A stretch of 32,211 nucleotides of DNA from JBBIPZ01 sp037442505 [NCBI: Deltaproteobacteria bacterium]. Its GTDB lineage: Bacteria > CALINM01. Below are positions 12,140 through 32,211 of the stretch, piece after piece. The first letter of the stretch is position 1; every line of letters starts with the position of its first letter. Location of the stretch: positions 1-32,211 of the forward strand of contig JBBIPZ010000025.1 in assembly GCA_037442505.1 (NCBI GenBank). The letters run 5' to 3'. The position numbers were made by a program, and so were the translations under genes. The notes below the pieces were generated by a model. That model was not told where the DNA came from and searched no databases. It saw nothing but the letters and a program-made list of their open reading frames with translations.

Positions 12140-12534
12140 ATGAGAAAATTTTTGCCATATTTATTAGTAGGGCTTGGTGGTTTTTTAGGCGCAAATACGC
12201 GTTTTATAGCAGGAAAAATTTTTTCTAAATACTTCACAGTTTACTTTCCATTCAGCACGTTTTTTATAAACATAACTGGCAGTTTTTTATTAGGTATTGT
12301 TGGGTATATAGCTGCTTATTTTAAAATCTTTGACCCGGACTATTTCCGTTACTTGTTGGGAATAGGCTTTTTGGGGGCTTACACCACATTTTCTACTTTT
12401 GAATACGAGACAAATACTCTTCTGGAAGAAGGTGCATTTTTTATTTCTGCTTTATACGTGGTCTCCAGTGTGTTGTTAGGGCTTCTTGCCGTAAAACTTG
12501 GTATTTTAACAGCCAAATACTTTGCAAGGTTATT

Positions 12535-12538
<4 letters not shown>
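12140..12538 (+). CDS. crcB: Fluoride channel CrcB/FluC
   Basis: A 132-residue, four-span protein that exports fluoride as an antiparallel dual-topology dimer. Family sites are visible: GGFLGANTRF (13-22) in the first span, FINITGSFLLG with Asn44 in the second, and GFLGAYTTFSTFEYET (76-91) in the third, which carries the pore Phe and Na+-site residues. A single copy fits a homodimer. The next gene, a DUF190 protein, overlaps it by 4 bases (ATGA), a frequent crcB partner. Confidence 0.95.
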
Positions 12539-14584
<2,046 letters not shown>

Positions 14585-16775: not shown

Positions 16776-17669
16776 ATGGGTGAAGAAAAAAGAAGAGACC
16801 CAAGAGTTTCTGTAAAATTAAAGGTAAAACTTGTAAATAACAGTTTTGATGGAGAATTTTACACTGTCAACGTTAGTAGAGGTGGCGTCTTCATTGAAAC
16901 AAAAAATCCATTCACCTTGGGTGATTATTTTTATCTTGAGCTATTCCTCACAGAGTCAGAAAAGATTTCCTGTAATGCCAAAGTAGTCTGGGTTTCACAT
17001 TATACAGAAAACAGTTCCTATCTCCCCGGTATGGGACTAAAATTTGAAAACTTATCATTAAAAGATAGAGAAAAAATAGGATGCCTCCTGGGTGAGATTT
17101 TAAGGAGAGAACAAGAAGTGGATGCAGACATGCATTATAATCTTAATGAGAGACTTGTTATTTCTTCTGATGATATATGCGAAACCCCGGCAGAAGTCAT
17201 CGCAGTATTAGCAGGAATCGGAATTAGAGACAGAGTAAGTTTAACACAGGAAGTGCTAAAAAATGCAGGAGAAACATTGGTTAAAAATTATAATCTTTAT
17301 GGAGATGATTTAGAAATTGGAGATGCAATCCTGGTACCTTATGAAGGCAAATTAACCAATCCATACATAATCCTTGTAGGTACTCCTTCTTTTTATGATG
17401 CCTTTGGGGAAGAGAACTTAAGAAATGTCATGCTCGATGTACTAAAAATGGCTAAAGATCAGGCTTTCACAAGCTTAGCTGTCCCGGCATTCTCGTTTTT
17501 AGAGGTTGGTTATCCAATACTGAGTGTAGCAAAAATATGTTTAGGAACAGCTTATGGTTTTCTTAAAAAAGAGATTTTCCCAAGAAAAATATTTTTTTAT
17601 TGCAACTACAACAATATTCAGGATTTTCTTGTTTTTGAAAAGATAAAAAAGGAGATATTTTTAGATTGA
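16776..17669 (+). CDS. PilZ-macro domain fusion protein
   Basis: A 297-residue protein with two domains. The N-terminal PilZ domain (about 5-110) has an intact c-di-GMP motif: RxxxR at 6-10 (RRDPR) and NxSxxG at 32-37 (NVSRGG), then the closing GMGLKFENLS. From about 125 to the end it reads as a macro domain: SSDDICETPAEVIAVLAG in place of the usual GDIT...NAAN, LTQEVLKNAGETLV, LEIGDAILVPYEGKL, YIILVG, then SLAVPAFSFLEVGYPILSVAKICLGTAYGFL and IFFYCN. The nucleotide-binding Asn and the STGxFG phosphate loop are not conserved (SFLEVGYP replaces the latter), so ADP-ribose hydrolysis is unlikely and the ligand may differ. It lies 1 base after the unknown gene and overlaps the precorrin-2 dehydrogenase gene by 4. 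Confidence 0.8.
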   Translation: MGEEKRRDPRVSVKLKVKLVNNSFDGEFYTVNVSRGGVFIETKNPFTLGDYFYLELFLTESEKISCNAKVVWVSHYTENSSYLPGMGLKFENLSLKDREKIGCLLGEILRREQEVDADMHYNLNERLVISSDDICETPAEVIAVLAGIGIRDRVSLTQEVLKNAGETLVKNYNLYGDDLEIGDAILVPYEGKLTNPYIILVGTPSFYDAFGEENLRNVMLDVLKMAKDQAFTSLAVPAFSFLEVGYPILSVAKICLGTAYGFLKKEIFPRKIFFYCNYNNIQDFLVFEKIKKEIFLD

Positions 17670-18313
17670 GCAGTTATGTGCCAATTTGCGTTTGTCTCGA
17701 AAACAAATCATGCCTTGTGGTTGGTGGTGGTAGCGTTGCAGAAAGAAAGGTAAAAAACATAGTCTCATCGTCACCAGAAATAACGCTTGTTTCACCTACA
17801 ATCACCCCATATTTATTCAAACTGGCTTCTTTGAAAAAATTAAACTGGGAAAAAAGAGAATTTTGCGAAAGCGATATTGACAATAAATTTATTGTTTTTG
17901 CATCAACAAATGACGAGGATTTAAACAGAAAAATTGCTGAGCTTTGTGAAAATAAAGGTGTTCTTGTTAATGTGGCTAAGCCCGGAAGATATGGTAATTT
18001 TATTGTGCCCGCTTCTATAAAAAAGGGAAGTATAGCCATTTCTATTTCAACATCTGGTGAAGCACCTTTCTTCTCAGCACTAATAAAAAAAGATATACAA
18101 AAAAGGCTTTTTTATTATCATAAACTTTTCAAGATTTTAAAACCTCTAAGGTCTCATTTATTGACAAAAAACGATGTTCAAGTTTATAATAATTTGATGT
18201 TTAAAACGTTTTTTAATGATAATGTTTTTAAAAACTTAGAAGCAGGTAATTTAAAGGCTGTTCAGAAAATAGTTAAGGATTTTTTATCAGCAATCTCCGA
18301 GGAAAAAGAATGA
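17666..18313 (+). CDS. Precorrin-2 dehydrogenase / sirohydrochlorin ferrochelatase (CysG N-terminal/Met8 type)
   Basis: A 215-residue NAD-dependent enzyme that oxidises precorrin-2 to sirohydrochlorin and, in Met8-like forms, also inserts iron. It has the Rossmann motif LVVGGGSVAERKVKN, FASTNDEDLNRKI, VNVAKPGRYGNFIVPASIKKGSIAISISTSGEAPFFSALI, which is diagnostic. Siroheme here is likely a precursor of heme through the Ahb route. The start is TTG at 17666 with AAGGAGA at 17648-17654; the second residue onward (SSYVPICVCLENKSCLVVGGG) matches family N-termini. Confidence 0.9.
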   Translation: MSSYVPICVCLENKSCLVVGGGSVAERKVKNIVSSSPEITLVSPTITPYLFKLASLKKLNWEKREFCESDIDNKFIVFASTNDEDLNRKIAELCENKGVLVNVAKPGRYGNFIVPASIKKGSIAISISTSGEAPFFSALIKKDIQKRLFYYHKLFKILKPLRSHLLTKNDVQVYNNLMFKTFFNDNVFKNLEAGNLKAVQKIVKDFLSAISEEKE

Positions 18314-19131
18314 TATTTCAGTTAACATTTTACCCTATTTTATTTTTCCTTCTTTGTGCGACCCTTTTCTTTTTCTTTTTTCTTTTTACACTGCAAGAAA
18401 AATGGGGACGCATTGGAGTATCGTTCTTAAGTCTCAGTTTAGTTGCAAGTTTTTTATATTTAATAGTTAAAGCTATAAATCTTGGCTACCTTCCTATAAC
18501 AAATAAACACGAATCTCTTGTTTTTTTTGAATTTTTATTGATTTTTATCTTTTTCATCTTTTACTACAAGTTTCGTTTACTTATGGTGGGGGTTTTTCTA
18601 TCTCCATTAGCTTTACTATTGGTGGTAGTGTCTGCCTTTATGAATAAAGAAACCAGCACTGTAATACCCGTCCTACACAGCTTCTGGCTACCTCTACATG
18701 TAATGGCAGCATTTATTGGCAACGCCCTTTTTGCACTTTCGTTTGTGATAAGTTTTATATACCTTATTGAAAATTTTAGACTGAAGAAAAAAAAATTTGA
18801 TGAGTTTGGAAAATATCTACCATCTATAACTATCCTCGACAATATTAACTATTTCTGCATAGTTTACGGTTTCCCATTTATGACTTTAGGAATAATTACA
18901 GGCGCAATCTGGGCACAATATGCGATTGGTTCTTACTGGAATAACGACCCCAAGGAAGTATGGTCTTTAATAACATGGATACTTTATGCAGCTTTGCTCC
19001 ATTTAAGACTTATAACAGGATGGAAAGGTAAAAAGGTTGCTATGTTTTCTATCCTTGCATTTATAATACTGATTTTCAGTTTTGTCGGTGTAACATATCT
19101 CTTTAAAGGATACCATTCGTTCAGATTATGA
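18310..19131 (+). CDS. CcsA/HemX-like cytochrome c assembly membrane protein
   Basis: A 273-residue protein with about eight spans. The cytochrome c assembly (CcsA/CcmC) signature appears as AIGSYWNNDPKEVWSLITW, a WWD-type heme-handling loop, with histidines in preceding and following spans (LPLHVMAAF, LLHLRLITGW). This family includes both true System II CcsA/ResC synthetases and HemX, which sits next to hemA and modulates its level. Location directly before hemA (4-base overlap) favours HemX-like naming, while the abundance of c-type cytochromes makes a heme-export role attractive. The two cannot be separated from this sequence alone. No ccsB is in the window. Confidence 0.82.
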   Translation: MIFQLTFYPILFFLLCATLFFFFFLFTLQEKWGRIGVSFLSLSLVASFLYLIVKAINLGYLPITNKHESLVFFEFLLIFIFFIFYYKFRLLMVGVFLSPLALLLVVVSAFMNKETSTVIPVLHSFWLPLHVMAAFIGNALFALSFVISFIYLIENFRLKKKKFDEFGKYLPSITILDNINYFCIVYGFPFMTLGIITGAIWAQYAIGSYWNNDPKEVWSLITWILYAALLHLRLITGWKGKKVAMFSILAFIILIFSFVGVTYLFKGYHSFRL

Positions 19132-29790: not shown

Positions 29791-30183
29791 CTACTTTTTC
29801 TGTTTTGGTTTTGTTTCTCTGGCATTTTGCTGCTGTTGCTGTTGCTGTTCCTGCTGCTGCATATGTTGCATCATCTGTGGGTTTAATGCCAGCTGACGCT
29901 CCATAGTAATATTCTTCTTCGTGTCTGCCTCAACGATACTGCCAGAAACGATGTACTTTGCATCTTTGTCAGTATAAAAGATTATAGACTGATTATTAAG
30001 CTTTAAAACTACCTCATAAAGCCCGGATATTTCCTTCAGCTTATTTACCTCTGAAATTTCAAAATCAACCGGCATAATCTTTTTTACCGATGCCTTCACC
30101 ACATCCCTGGAAGGTGCCCCACCACATCCAATAAACATACCTAAAACAGCTAAAACTACACAAAACTTAAACAATACTTTCAT
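29791..30183 (-). CDS. Lipoprotein resembling the DsbC N-terminal domain, with poly-Gln tail
   Basis: A 130-residue protein from the ATG at 30183 (AGGAGGAG just upstream; an ATG 48 bases earlier lies in the preceding gene and lacks support). A lipobox FIGC (17-20) with Gly after Cys predicts an outer-membrane-type lipoprotein. Residues about 30-95 resemble the small dimerisation domain of DsbC/DsbG: a KKIMPVDFEI strand, EISGLYEVVLKLN, IIFYTDKDAKYIVSGSIVEADTKKNIT. The catalytic thioredoxin domain is absent and the only Cys is the lipidated one. The tail is MQQQEQQQQQQQN then a basic end. It is coupled by TAATG to the surface protein gene. Function unknown; a partner-binding role is inferred. 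Confidence 0.75.
   Translation of the reverse strand: MKVLFKFCVVLAVLGMFIGCGGAPSRDVVKASVKKIMPVDFEISEVNKLKEISGLYEVVLKLNNQSIIFYTDKDAKYIVSGSIVEADTKKNITMERQLALNPQMMQHMQQQEQQQQQQQNARETKPKQKK
29827..29859 (-). repeat. CAR trinucleotide repeat encoding Gln
   Basis: Eleven codons of which ten are CAG or CAA and one is GAA, giving QQQEQQQQQQQ on the minus strand. Near-perfect triplet repeats change length in steps of one codon without breaking the frame. Confidence 0.85.
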
Positions 30184-32211
30184 TAACGTCTTCTCCTCCT
30201 GTTTTTTATTATTATAACCGCAAATATGCACAATAACAAGCTCCCTTGATATGTGTATTCAACAAAATAAACTATCGGTGTTAACATTAAGCGTGTAACA
30301 AATCTAAGCGCTTCGTGTTTTCTAATAAAATCGGCAATTGGTGGTGATGTGCGATAATAAAACTCAACAAACGCCCTTCCCGCAGCATTGGTAAGTAGAT
30401 AATTATCACGGAACTTTCTGAGTACCATAACATGAGGCTCCATATAACTACCATACGCAGCCGTAGCTATAAAACATCCTCCACCAGATGCAGTAACGGT
30501 AGTGCCAGTTCCACCAGTTGTACCTGTTCCACCTGTTGTTCCACCAGTTGTTGTAGCTGGCGTTGCATATCCCTGTAATGCAACAATCTTTGCACTGTCA
30601 GTTGTAGCATTTGTATTAATTGTAAAATTAGCAGAATTACTGCCTGTGGTTGTTGGTTCATAAGTAATATAGAGATTATAAATACCCCCACCATCTAAAA
30701 CATAGTTAGCAGAAGGTGCATTTAGTATTTTAAATGCAGCATCACTTGGCGCCGATATGCTTGTAATTGTAAGTTTAGTAGATCCTGTATTGGTTATTGT
30801 AACTGTTTTATAACTTACATTAGTGTTCAAAGCAACGCTACCAAAATCAATACTGCTTGGAGTTATAGAGTACGTTATAGAACCTGTTTGTCCTGCACCA
30901 CCCGTAGCACTTACATAAACAGCCTGTAAAAAAATTTCCTGTGTTCCAGCAGAAGTAGTAATTGTAAAACTTCCTACACTGCTTCCATAAGTATTATTAG
31001 GTGCAACTGAAGGCACAGTATAAGAAATTTGTAGAGTATACGTGCCATTTTTAGGTATATTAATAGATGTCGTTGGTCTATTAACAATAACGAAGCTGCT
31101 GTTTGTTGGCATGGATACTGAAGTTAATGTCATAGCTGCATCGCCATTATTAGTTATCTTTAGTTCTTGCCACTGAGTGGTAGTGTTTTCTGTGACAGTG
31201 CCAAAGTCTATATATGTTTTATCAACTGTCATTTCACCTGTTGTGCCTGTGCCTACAAGATTTATAGTTTTCGTTCCGGCGTTTGTCTCTATATCTATAG
31301 AACCAGCATAACTATTGCCAGATTGTGGCGTAAACCTGACAGTCAGTGTTGCACTATTGCCTGCTGTAACTGATGTCGCAGATAAACTTACAAAACTAAA
31401 ACCATCAGGAAATGCGCTGGGCTGTTTAATAGTTAATGTGTCATCCCCTTCGTTATATATTGTAAGTGTCTTAGTTATGTTTGAACCAACAGTAACACTT
31501 CCAAAATCAATCGTATCCTTATCTGTTTTTAAAACTGGAGCTACTATCTTGCCACTCAATGGTAACACTTTAGAAGTAGATGGATATGTAGTTGTTATAG
31601 ATAAGCTGTCTTCTATATTCATCCTGCTTGAACCAGTAATGCTTAATGTTATTGGGAAGTTATCACCTTCGTTTAAGTACGCAGGTAAAGTACTATCTAA
31701 GCTTATCGTTACATTTTGATTACTCGTTTTAATCTCTTTCAATTCATATGGAACATCTCCATCATTCACTATATATATAGTAACCCTTCCTTCATTATTC
31801 ACCTTCACATTACCAAAGTCCACTGTTGTTATTGAATTGCCAAGTGAATTTCTTATACTTATAGCAGGTGTCGCTGCCACGCCACTCAATGATATCGTTT
31901 GGTTAGGATTAAGAGGGTCGTCTGTGTTTATCACAAAGCTTTCGTTGAAGGTTCCGGGTGTTGTAGGAGTAAAGCTTACCAATATGTTTTCTGTAGCATT
32001 TGGTGCAATTTGTAAAGACGAGACACCTGACTTATCAAGAGCAAATGGTGTGCCTGATAGACTGTTTGCGGTATCAATACCTGTTATAGTTAGAAAACTA
32101 TTACCCGTATTAGTTATCTCAATGTATTCTGTCCATGTTAGCCCTGTTCCAACCTGCTCAAAATCCACACTCGTTACACTATACGTCGCCTTGCCACCTG
32201 TGCCCTGCCCT
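30183..32211 (-). CDS. Large surface protein with repeated ASH/choice-of-anchor-D domains and CFI-box C-terminus (5' partial)
   Basis: The frame is open to the window edge; at least 676 codons are here and the N-terminus with any signal peptide is missing. Five Ig-like repeats each open with a V/I-DF-x-x-V motif (VDFEQV, VDFGNV, IDFGSV, IDFGTV, IDFGSV) and continue with an ITNTG- or IYNEG-type strand, as in ASPM-SPD-2-Hydin (choice-of-anchor D) domains. A Gly/Thr linker (TGGTTGG type) leads to [44 protein letters not shown] and LTPIVYF, the CFI-box-CTERM module, then a hydrophobic stretch ([12 protein letters not shown]) and five Arg. The tripartite end suggests envelope sorting. The Arg codons double as the ribosome site of the next gene. 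Confidence 0.86.

What the first reader, a model, noticed from the sequence alone, without database searches (positions are those of the whole stretch)
16776..17669. PilZ domain fused to a divergent macro domain
The N-terminal PilZ has both halves of the c-di-GMP site (RRDPR at 6-10 and NVSRGG at 32-37). The C-terminal 170 residues follow the macro-domain order, most clearly SLAVPAFSFLEVGYPILSVAKICL, which parallels the family's SIAFPAIS-G-FGFP stretch, and LEIGDAILVPYEGKL before YIILVG. The catalytic Asn and the phosphate loop are altered. PilZ domains are usually fused to glycosyltransferases, pilus or flagellar modules; I do not know of a described PilZ-macro protein. It could read c-di-GMP on one side and an ADP-ribose- or nucleotide-like ligand on the other. 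It sits directly before the heme genes.
Basis: partly seen in the sequence, partly recalled or inferred. Interest (0 to 1): 0.75.

Follow-up and report, generated by a model that had tools for sequence, protein, structure and literature searches.

The report
PilZ fused to an eroded macrodomain
A gene in a bacterial heme-making operon joins a PilZ module, the usual receptor for the bacterial messenger c-di-GMP, to a macrodomain whose normal ADP-ribose site has worn away, a pairing that our paper searches did not turn up.

Summary
The 297-residue ORF at 16776-17669 (+) carries a PilZ domain (Pfam E 1.4e-16, residues 4-105) and a divergent macrodomain (Pfam 24.4 bits, cut-off 22; predicted fold Z 22.9 to E. 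coli YmdB, 1.9 Å over 162 residues). A control model made without any canonical macrodomain in its alignment has low confidence, but its best structural matches are still macrodomain chains and, from rank 19, c-di-GMP-bound PilZ. Two full-length orthologs (44% and 30% identical) sit in the same place, between a GSU2086-family gene and a cysG-N gene, in two of the three genomes held for one small phylum; the third has the operon without the gene. No other such fusion was seen in the genomes searched, which are partial samples. Reading ADP-ribose is unlikely: the catalytic Asn, the loop-1 glycines and the first Gly of the diphosphate loop are lost in all three orthologs. Best reading: a c-di-GMP receptor whose output is a pseudo-macrodomain, probably co-transcribed with tetrapyrrole and cytochrome c genes. 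The target is unknown. New domain architecture, moderate interest.

The parts
16776..17669 (+). PilZ-macro fusion gene, 297 aa (P0001)
   Evidence: ORF; Pfam PilZ and Macro above their cut-offs; orthologs in L002 and L089
16785..17090 (+). PilZ domain, residues 4-105, with RRDPR (6-10) and NVSRGG (32-37)
   Evidence: PF07238 E 1.4e-16; control model matches c-di-GMP-bound PilZ 4xrn and 4rt0
17091..17129 (+). end of the PilZ C-terminal helix and linker, residues 106-118; pLDDT under 50 at 115-118
   Evidence: helix 95-113 and pLDDT profile
17130..17666 (+). divergent macrodomain, residues 119-297
   Evidence: PF01661 25.6 bits; fold match to YmdB over model residues 124-297, Z 22.9, rmsd 1.9, 162 aligned
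17211..17246 (+). eroded loop 1, residues about 146-157 (AGIGIRDRVSLT), where canonical macros have AN..L..GGGV
   Evidence: alignments
17490..17516 (+). altered diphosphate loop, residues 239-247 (FSFLEVGYP for ISTGVYGYP in OiMacroD); E243 invariant in the three orthologs
   Evidence: ligand contacts of the OiMacroD loop from PMC5413906
15833..16774 (+). upstream neighbour, GSU2086 family protein; one base separates its stop from the start of the fusion
   Evidence: NF052581 E 2.2e-127; sequence
17666..18313 (+). downstream neighbour, siroheme synthase N-terminal-domain (CysG-N) protein; its TTG start overlaps the TGA stop of the fusion
   Evidence: TIGR01470 109.9 bits, cut-off 62.3; sequence at the junction
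18310..19131 (+). CcsB, cytochrome c biogenesis
   Evidence: TIGR03144
19128..20420 (+). HemA, glutamyl-tRNA reductase
   Evidence: TIGR01035
20404..24957 (+). HemC, uroporphyrinogen-III methyltransferase with a synthase-like part, HemB, AhbD-type heme b synthase

Best explanation
The protein is a c-di-GMP receptor whose output part is a pseudo-macrodomain. The PilZ barrel binds c-di-GMP through its RxxxR linker and NxSxxG strand, which changes how the domains pack or pair. The attached macro fold no longer works as an ADP-ribose hydrolase or canonical reader and serves as a partner-binding surface. Because the gene is wedged, one base after a GSU2086-family gene and overlapping the cysG-N gene, into a siroheme-heme-cytochrome c operon, its likeliest partners are products of that operon, so that c-di-GMP level is tied to tetrapyrrole or cytochrome supply. 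Shown here: the architecture, the pocket erosion and the conserved place. Predicted: the macro fold. Inferred from motifs: c-di-GMP binding. Guess: the partner and the process.
For: Both domains pass their Pfam cut-offs. The macro fold is predicted with mean pLDDT 84.2 and Z 22.9 to YmdB. The weak control model from two fused sequences only (pLDDT 52.2) still ranks macrodomain chains first and lists c-di-GMP-bound PilZ (4xrn, rank 19). RxxxR is present in 3 of 3 orthologs and NxSxxG in 2 of 3. The messenger is probably made: 13, 12 and 12 GGDEF matches in G001, G002 and G005. In G005 the fusion is the only PilZ match found. The catalytic Asn column and loop columns that are conserved in 35 to 43 of 43 stand-alone macros are lost in 3 of 3 fusions (columns 37, 43-46, 48, 130). 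Fusion-specific residues are invariant in the three: D208, G211-E213, L215-R216, E243, GFLKKE 261-266. The place is the same in all three.
Against: No ligand was tested. The loss is broad, not confined to the pocket: of 55 columns conserved in at least 80% of 43 stand-alone macros, 27 are lost in all three fusions and only 5 kept in all three. In the diphosphate loop the Ser and the second Gly are kept in 2 of 3, and the window protein keeps the Asp of the GDIT motif. L002 has lost the Ser of NxSxxG and is 28% identical to the window in the macro part, against 73% for GSU2086, so constraint may be weak. L001 has the operon and no such gene. Operon membership does not show regulation, and GSU2086 and the gmhA-like gene are not heme genes. 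The confident model used an alignment with 20 canonical macros, which favours that fold.
Confidence: 0.5

Rival explanations
1. The macro part still binds ADP-ribose or O-acetyl-ADP-ribose in a modified pocket, so the protein reads two nucleotides.
For: Predicted macro fold; MacroD-type nearest PDB sequences; Asp of the GDIT motif kept in the window protein; Ser and second Gly of the diphosphate loop kept in 2 of 3 fusions.
Against: The Asp is Asn in the two orthologs; the catalytic Asn column is Gly in 3 of 3; loop-1 glycines and the first diphosphate-loop Gly are lost in 3 of 3; Glu invariant in the diphosphate loop.
Confidence: 0.1
2. The macro pocket was rebuilt for another ligand, for example a linear dinucleotide, NAD or a tetrapyrrole intermediate, and the protein integrates that ligand with c-di-GMP.
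For: Fusion-specific invariant residues in the former pocket loops, such as E243 and G147; place in a tetrapyrrole operon; separate GGDEF-macro gene pairs in other genomes.
Against: No ligand is indicated and no pocket was modelled; the GGDEF-linked macros keep canonical loops by eye, and those of L127, L135, L139 and L142 fall far from the fusions in the tree; the L212 macro was not in it.
Confidence: 0.2
3. Both domains are decaying: the gene is a fast-evolving passenger without a signalling role.
For: 28-45% identity to the window in the macro part against 64-73% for GSU2086; 27 of 55 conserved macro columns lost in all three; absence from L001; NIIRGG in L002.
Against: Full-length open frame in three divergent genomes with invariant blocks; cysG-N diverges about as fast (33-42% outside the close pair L001-L002), so fast change is not special to this gene.
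Confidence: 0.2

Closest known systems
PilZ family (Pfam PF07238; PilZ domains with c-di-GMP, PDB 4rt0 of Alg44 and 4xrn)
   Same: Pfam E 1.4e-16; RxxxR and NxSxxG motifs; structural matches of the control model
   Different: C-terminal partner is a macrodomain; ligand binding untested; one ortholog lacks the Ser of the second motif
MacroD-type macrodomains: E. coli YmdB (1spv, 5cb3, 5cb5) and OiMacroD (5lau, 5l9k)
   Same: Predicted fold: Z 22.9, 1.9 Å over 162 residues for YmdB; sequence match 1.8e-6
   Different: Catalytic Asn, loop-1 glycines and first diphosphate-loop Gly absent; fused to PilZ
Macrodomains that lost activity (PARP15, some PARP14 and viral ones; PMC10221186, abstract and section list seen)
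   Same: Macro fold without the enzyme activity
   Different: Those are animal or viral proteins; here bacterial and fused to PilZ
Stand-alone degenerate macros L130 and L138
   Same: Catalytic Asn column also changed (Arg); P0001 and L130 align over 111 residues at 32%
   Different: They keep most loop-1 and diphosphate-loop glycines, show no PilZ in the fetched frame, and the tree does not group them with the fusions

Membership tests
PilZ (PF07238) | Profile match above the curated cut-off | tested here: met
   61.2 bits against 22.5
PilZ (PF07238) | RxxxR and [D/N]xSxxG motifs | tested here: met
   RRDPR 6-10 and NVSRGG 32-37 in the window protein; second motif changed in L002
PilZ (PF07238) | c-di-GMP binding | not testable with these tools
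   needs purified protein
Macro domain (PF01661) | Profile match above the curated cut-off | tested here: met
   24.4 and 25.6 bits against 22
Macro domain (PF01661) | Macro fold | tested here: met
   predicted only: Z 22.9 to 5cb5; weak control model agrees
MacroD-type ADP-ribosyl hydrolase / O-acetyl-ADP-ribose deacetylase | Catalytic Asn (second Asn of NAAN; N30 of OiMacroD by recall and by the N30A entry 5lbp) | tested here: not met
   Gly in 3 of 3 fusions; Asn in 35 of 43 stand-alone macros
MacroD-type ADP-ribosyl hydrolase / O-acetyl-ADP-ribose deacetylase | Glycine-rich loop 1 (GGGV) | tested here: not met
   columns 43-46 and 48 lost in 3 of 3
MacroD-type ADP-ribosyl hydrolase / O-acetyl-ADP-ribose deacetylase | Diphosphate loop SxGxxG | tested here: not met
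   first Gly lost in 3 of 3 (43 of 43 in the others); Ser and second Gly kept in 2 of 3
MacroD-type ADP-ribosyl hydrolase / O-acetyl-ADP-ribose deacetylase | Curated NCBIfam cut-off | tested here: not met
   best model NF001660 30.9 bits against 271

The most novel reading that the evidence does not exclude
Macrodomains form a little-known branch of c-di-GMP signalling: here a PilZ-gated pseudo-macrodomain sets tetrapyrrole or cytochrome c output, and in other genomes diguanylate cyclases with intact GGDEF motifs are paired with canonical macrodomain genes (PAS-GGDEF in G005; CBS-GGDEF in four genomes), so that c-di-GMP and an ADP-ribose-like nucleotide economy are linked.
Probability: 0.1. 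Interest if true: 0.8.

Novelty: new variant of a known kind. Interest (0 to 1): 0.5.

Why it matters
If right, it adds an effector type to c-di-GMP signalling, a macrodomain used as a passive output module, and offers a concrete candidate for c-di-GMP control of heme and cytochrome supply in uncultured bacteria. In G005 it is the only PilZ protein detected beside 12 GGDEF matches, so it could be the main PilZ output there (the completeness of that genome was not told, so a PilZ gene may be missing).

Tried and rejected
Assembly or frameshift fusion: rejected, because two orthologs in other genomes have the same architecture. Active ADP-ribose hydrolase: thought unlikely on pocket residues. 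Fold imposed by the alignment: tested with a two-row alignment without canonical macros; confidence fell to pLDDT 52.2, so that model alone proves little, but its best matches are still macrodomain chains and PilZ. L130/L138 as nearest kin: good BLASTP match, but the tree puts them elsewhere; the fused branches are very long and their place is unsure.

Led nowhere: genome-contig scan with the fusion protein (30 pattern matches, no relative); plasmid tblastn (none); paper searches on c-di-GMP with heme biosynthesis and PilZ (2 papers), PilZ domain architectures (29 papers, 12 listed) and macrodomain evolution (46 papers, 12 listed), judged by their listings.

Limits of the search for more fusions: the fusion protein or its full profile was searched in 4, 145, 3, 13, 295, 10, 195 and 3 genomes (some genomes repeat), and the macro-only profile in 395. 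One search matched 174 genomes and cut its match list; only its best 30 loci were fetched and scanned for PilZ with a profile of the three fusions, and long frames such as that of L133 run beyond the fetched DNA. Other long frames, such as those in G403, G231, G375, G210 and G303, were not read. Searches used strict E-value limits. An independent PilZ-macro fusion elsewhere is therefore not excluded. The partial match L216 (mainly the PilZ part, two stops inside) was not followed.

Full report
What is there. The ORF at 16776-17669 on the + strand encodes 297 residues. Pfam finds PilZ at residues 4-105 (E 1.4e-16, 61.2 bits, cut-off 22.5) and Macro at 162-255 (E 3e-5, 24.4 bits, cut-off 22; 25.6 bits when the C-terminal part is scanned alone). 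NCBIfam gives TIGR02266 over the PilZ part (57.5 bits, below its cut-off of 68.7) and six O-acetyl-ADP-ribose deacetylase or ADP-ribose-binding models far below their cut-offs (best 30.9 bits against 271). phmmer against PDB chains gives 21 sequences with E up to 5, led by YmdB (1.8e-6) and OiMacroD (2.3e-6) macrodomains, then 'Type IV fimbriae assembly protein' entries over the PilZ part (1.3e-4).

Fold. An AlphaFold2 model from an alignment of the window protein, ortholog L002 and 20 viral-contig macrodomains has mean pLDDT 84.2 and pTM 0.78. Residues 124-297 match E. coli YmdB at Z 22.9, rmsd 1.9 over 162 residues. Since that alignment contains macrodomains, I ran a control with the two fused sequences alone: pLDDT 52.2, pTM 0.42, a weak model. 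Its Foldseek list of 50 rows holds macrodomain chains (for example OiMacroD 5lau 9.1e-7, YmdB 1.2e-6) and PilZ domains with c-di-GMP (4xrn 2.5e-6, 4rt0 5.7e-6). The two top rows, chains of 7d3y, are SPX-macroH2A fusion constructs by their molecule name. Profile-profile comparison of the fused macro parts with canonical ones gives probability 98.2.

Relatives. A scan of genome contigs with the fusion found none; a scan with the upstream GSU2086-family protein gave 80 loci, the best of 502. tblastn of the fusion on these 80 found one ortholog, L002 (30% identity, residues 3-296). A search of 145 genomes related to that one found another, L089 in G005 (44%, residues 4-295); 50 of the 145 had some match, the other 48 to the PilZ or the macro part. 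The phylum of G005 holds three genomes in this collection: two have the gene; the third, G001, does not. In L001, which lies in G001, the operon is intact and 87 bases separate the GSU2086 and cysG-N genes. No genome is held for the window, and I place it near these genomes only by neighbour identity and gene order (GSU2086 64-73%, ccsB 58-60%). Of the 80 loci, only L001 and L002 show a tblastn match to the window's cysG-N; several loci are short. No further fusion was seen in the other genomes searched, with the limits told under Tried and rejected.

The worn pocket. In an alignment of 43 stand-alone macro ORFs from the fetched loci with the three fusions (numbering of row L096), the catalytic Asn column (37) is Asn in 35 of 43 and Gly in 3 of 3 fusions. 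Loop-1 columns 43, 45 and 48 are Gly in 43 of 43 and something else in all three fusions; lost in all three are also column 88, the His of the VIH motif (43 of 43; its role was not checked), and column 130, the first Gly of the diphosphate loop (43 of 43). Against this, Ser 128 and Gly 133 of the same loop are kept in 2 of 3, and Asp 23 of the GDIT motif is kept in the window protein. The loss is broad: of 55 columns conserved in at least 80% of the 43, 27 are lost in all three fusions and 5 kept in all three; the first part (columns up to 61) keeps 0 of 24 in all three, the second 5 of 31. The 43 were found with the fusion itself or its macro profile, so they are not an unbiased sample. In OiMacroD, S130, G132, V133 and Y134 of the diphosphate loop touch the diphosphate (PMC5413906, passages). 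By the alignment the window protein has S240, L242, E243 and V244 there, and E243 is invariant in the three fusions. A Leu and a Glu in place of that Gly and Val argue against a bound diphosphate. New invariant blocks, D208, G211-E213, L215-R216 and G261-E266 (GFLKKE), suggest a shared new role.

The PilZ side. RxxxR is kept in all three; NxSxxG is kept in two, and L002 has NIIRGG. The three genomes of the phylum have 13, 12 and 12 GGDEF matches and 2, 3 and 1 PilZ matches, one of the three in G002 below the cut-off. In G005 the fusion is the only one.

Place. Gene order in the window is DUF3108, CrcB, DUF190, enolase, NrdG2, GmhA-like, GSU2086 family, PilZ-macro, CysG-N, CcsB, HemA, HemC, CobA with a HemD-like part, HemB, AhbD. 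The fusion starts one base after the upstream stop codon, and the downstream TTG start overlaps its TGA stop, so co-transcription is likely. The left part of the window has NrfD, ferredoxin-type, cytochrome c7 and NapC/NirT genes, which fits a need for heme.

Reading. I hold the architecture at about 0.95, c-di-GMP binding at about 0.7, loss of canonical ADP-ribose function at about 0.85, and a role in tetrapyrrole or cytochrome supply at about 0.25; these are judgements. A link from macrodomains to c-di-GMP has weak outside support: E. coli YmdB is reported to influence biofilm formation (review PMC7050489, passages), and GGDEF-macro gene pairs exist in other genomes (Noticed in passing).

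Literature. Searches for PilZ with 'macro domain' (2 papers), macrodomain with cyclic di-GMP (5), 'PilZ domain' with macrodomain (0), and diguanylate cyclase with macrodomain (4) show no description of such a protein in their listings (title and start of abstract); only open-access papers are held. The PilZ motif wording was checked in PMC12564702 (passages).

Noticed in passing
L212:2214-3659 (G005): A PAS-GGDEF gene (PAS by eye; GGDEF) with an intact GGDEF motif lies 6 bp before a canonical macrodomain gene, after ORFs that look like Fur, rubrerythrin, desulfoferrodoxin and peroxiredoxin (by eye, no search).
   Followed up: partly
L135:599-2031; L127:1498-2924; L142:1465-2918; L139:1426-2854: A CBS-GGDEF gene (CBS named by eye) overlaps a canonical macrodomain gene, after a queE-like gene (by eye). 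The CBS-GGDEF protein was found in 4 of 395 genomes at E up to 1e-50, and these are the same four loci; all have an intact GGDEF. L137 and L144 of the same macro clade have queE-like and macro genes without it.
   Followed up: partly
L130:1489-2028 and L138:1489-2082 (- strand): Stand-alone macrodomains with Arg in the catalytic Asn column but most loop glycines kept, both next to the same kind of multi-pass membrane protein gene (by eye).
   Followed up: partly
L150 (G544) and L199 (G577): PilZ match inside a 488-residue open frame in two genomes; the rest of the protein was not looked at.
   Followed up: no
L091 and L093: Neighbouring pairs of short PilZ ORFs in tandem.
   Followed up: no
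window 12140-13305: A CrcB-family gene followed by a protein with two DUF190 stretches; the same order stands in L001.
   Followed up: no
window 29794-32168 (- strand): 661-residue protein with HYDIN/ASH-type Ig-like and DUF1573 matches, overlapping a DsbC N-terminal-domain ORF.
   Followed up: no
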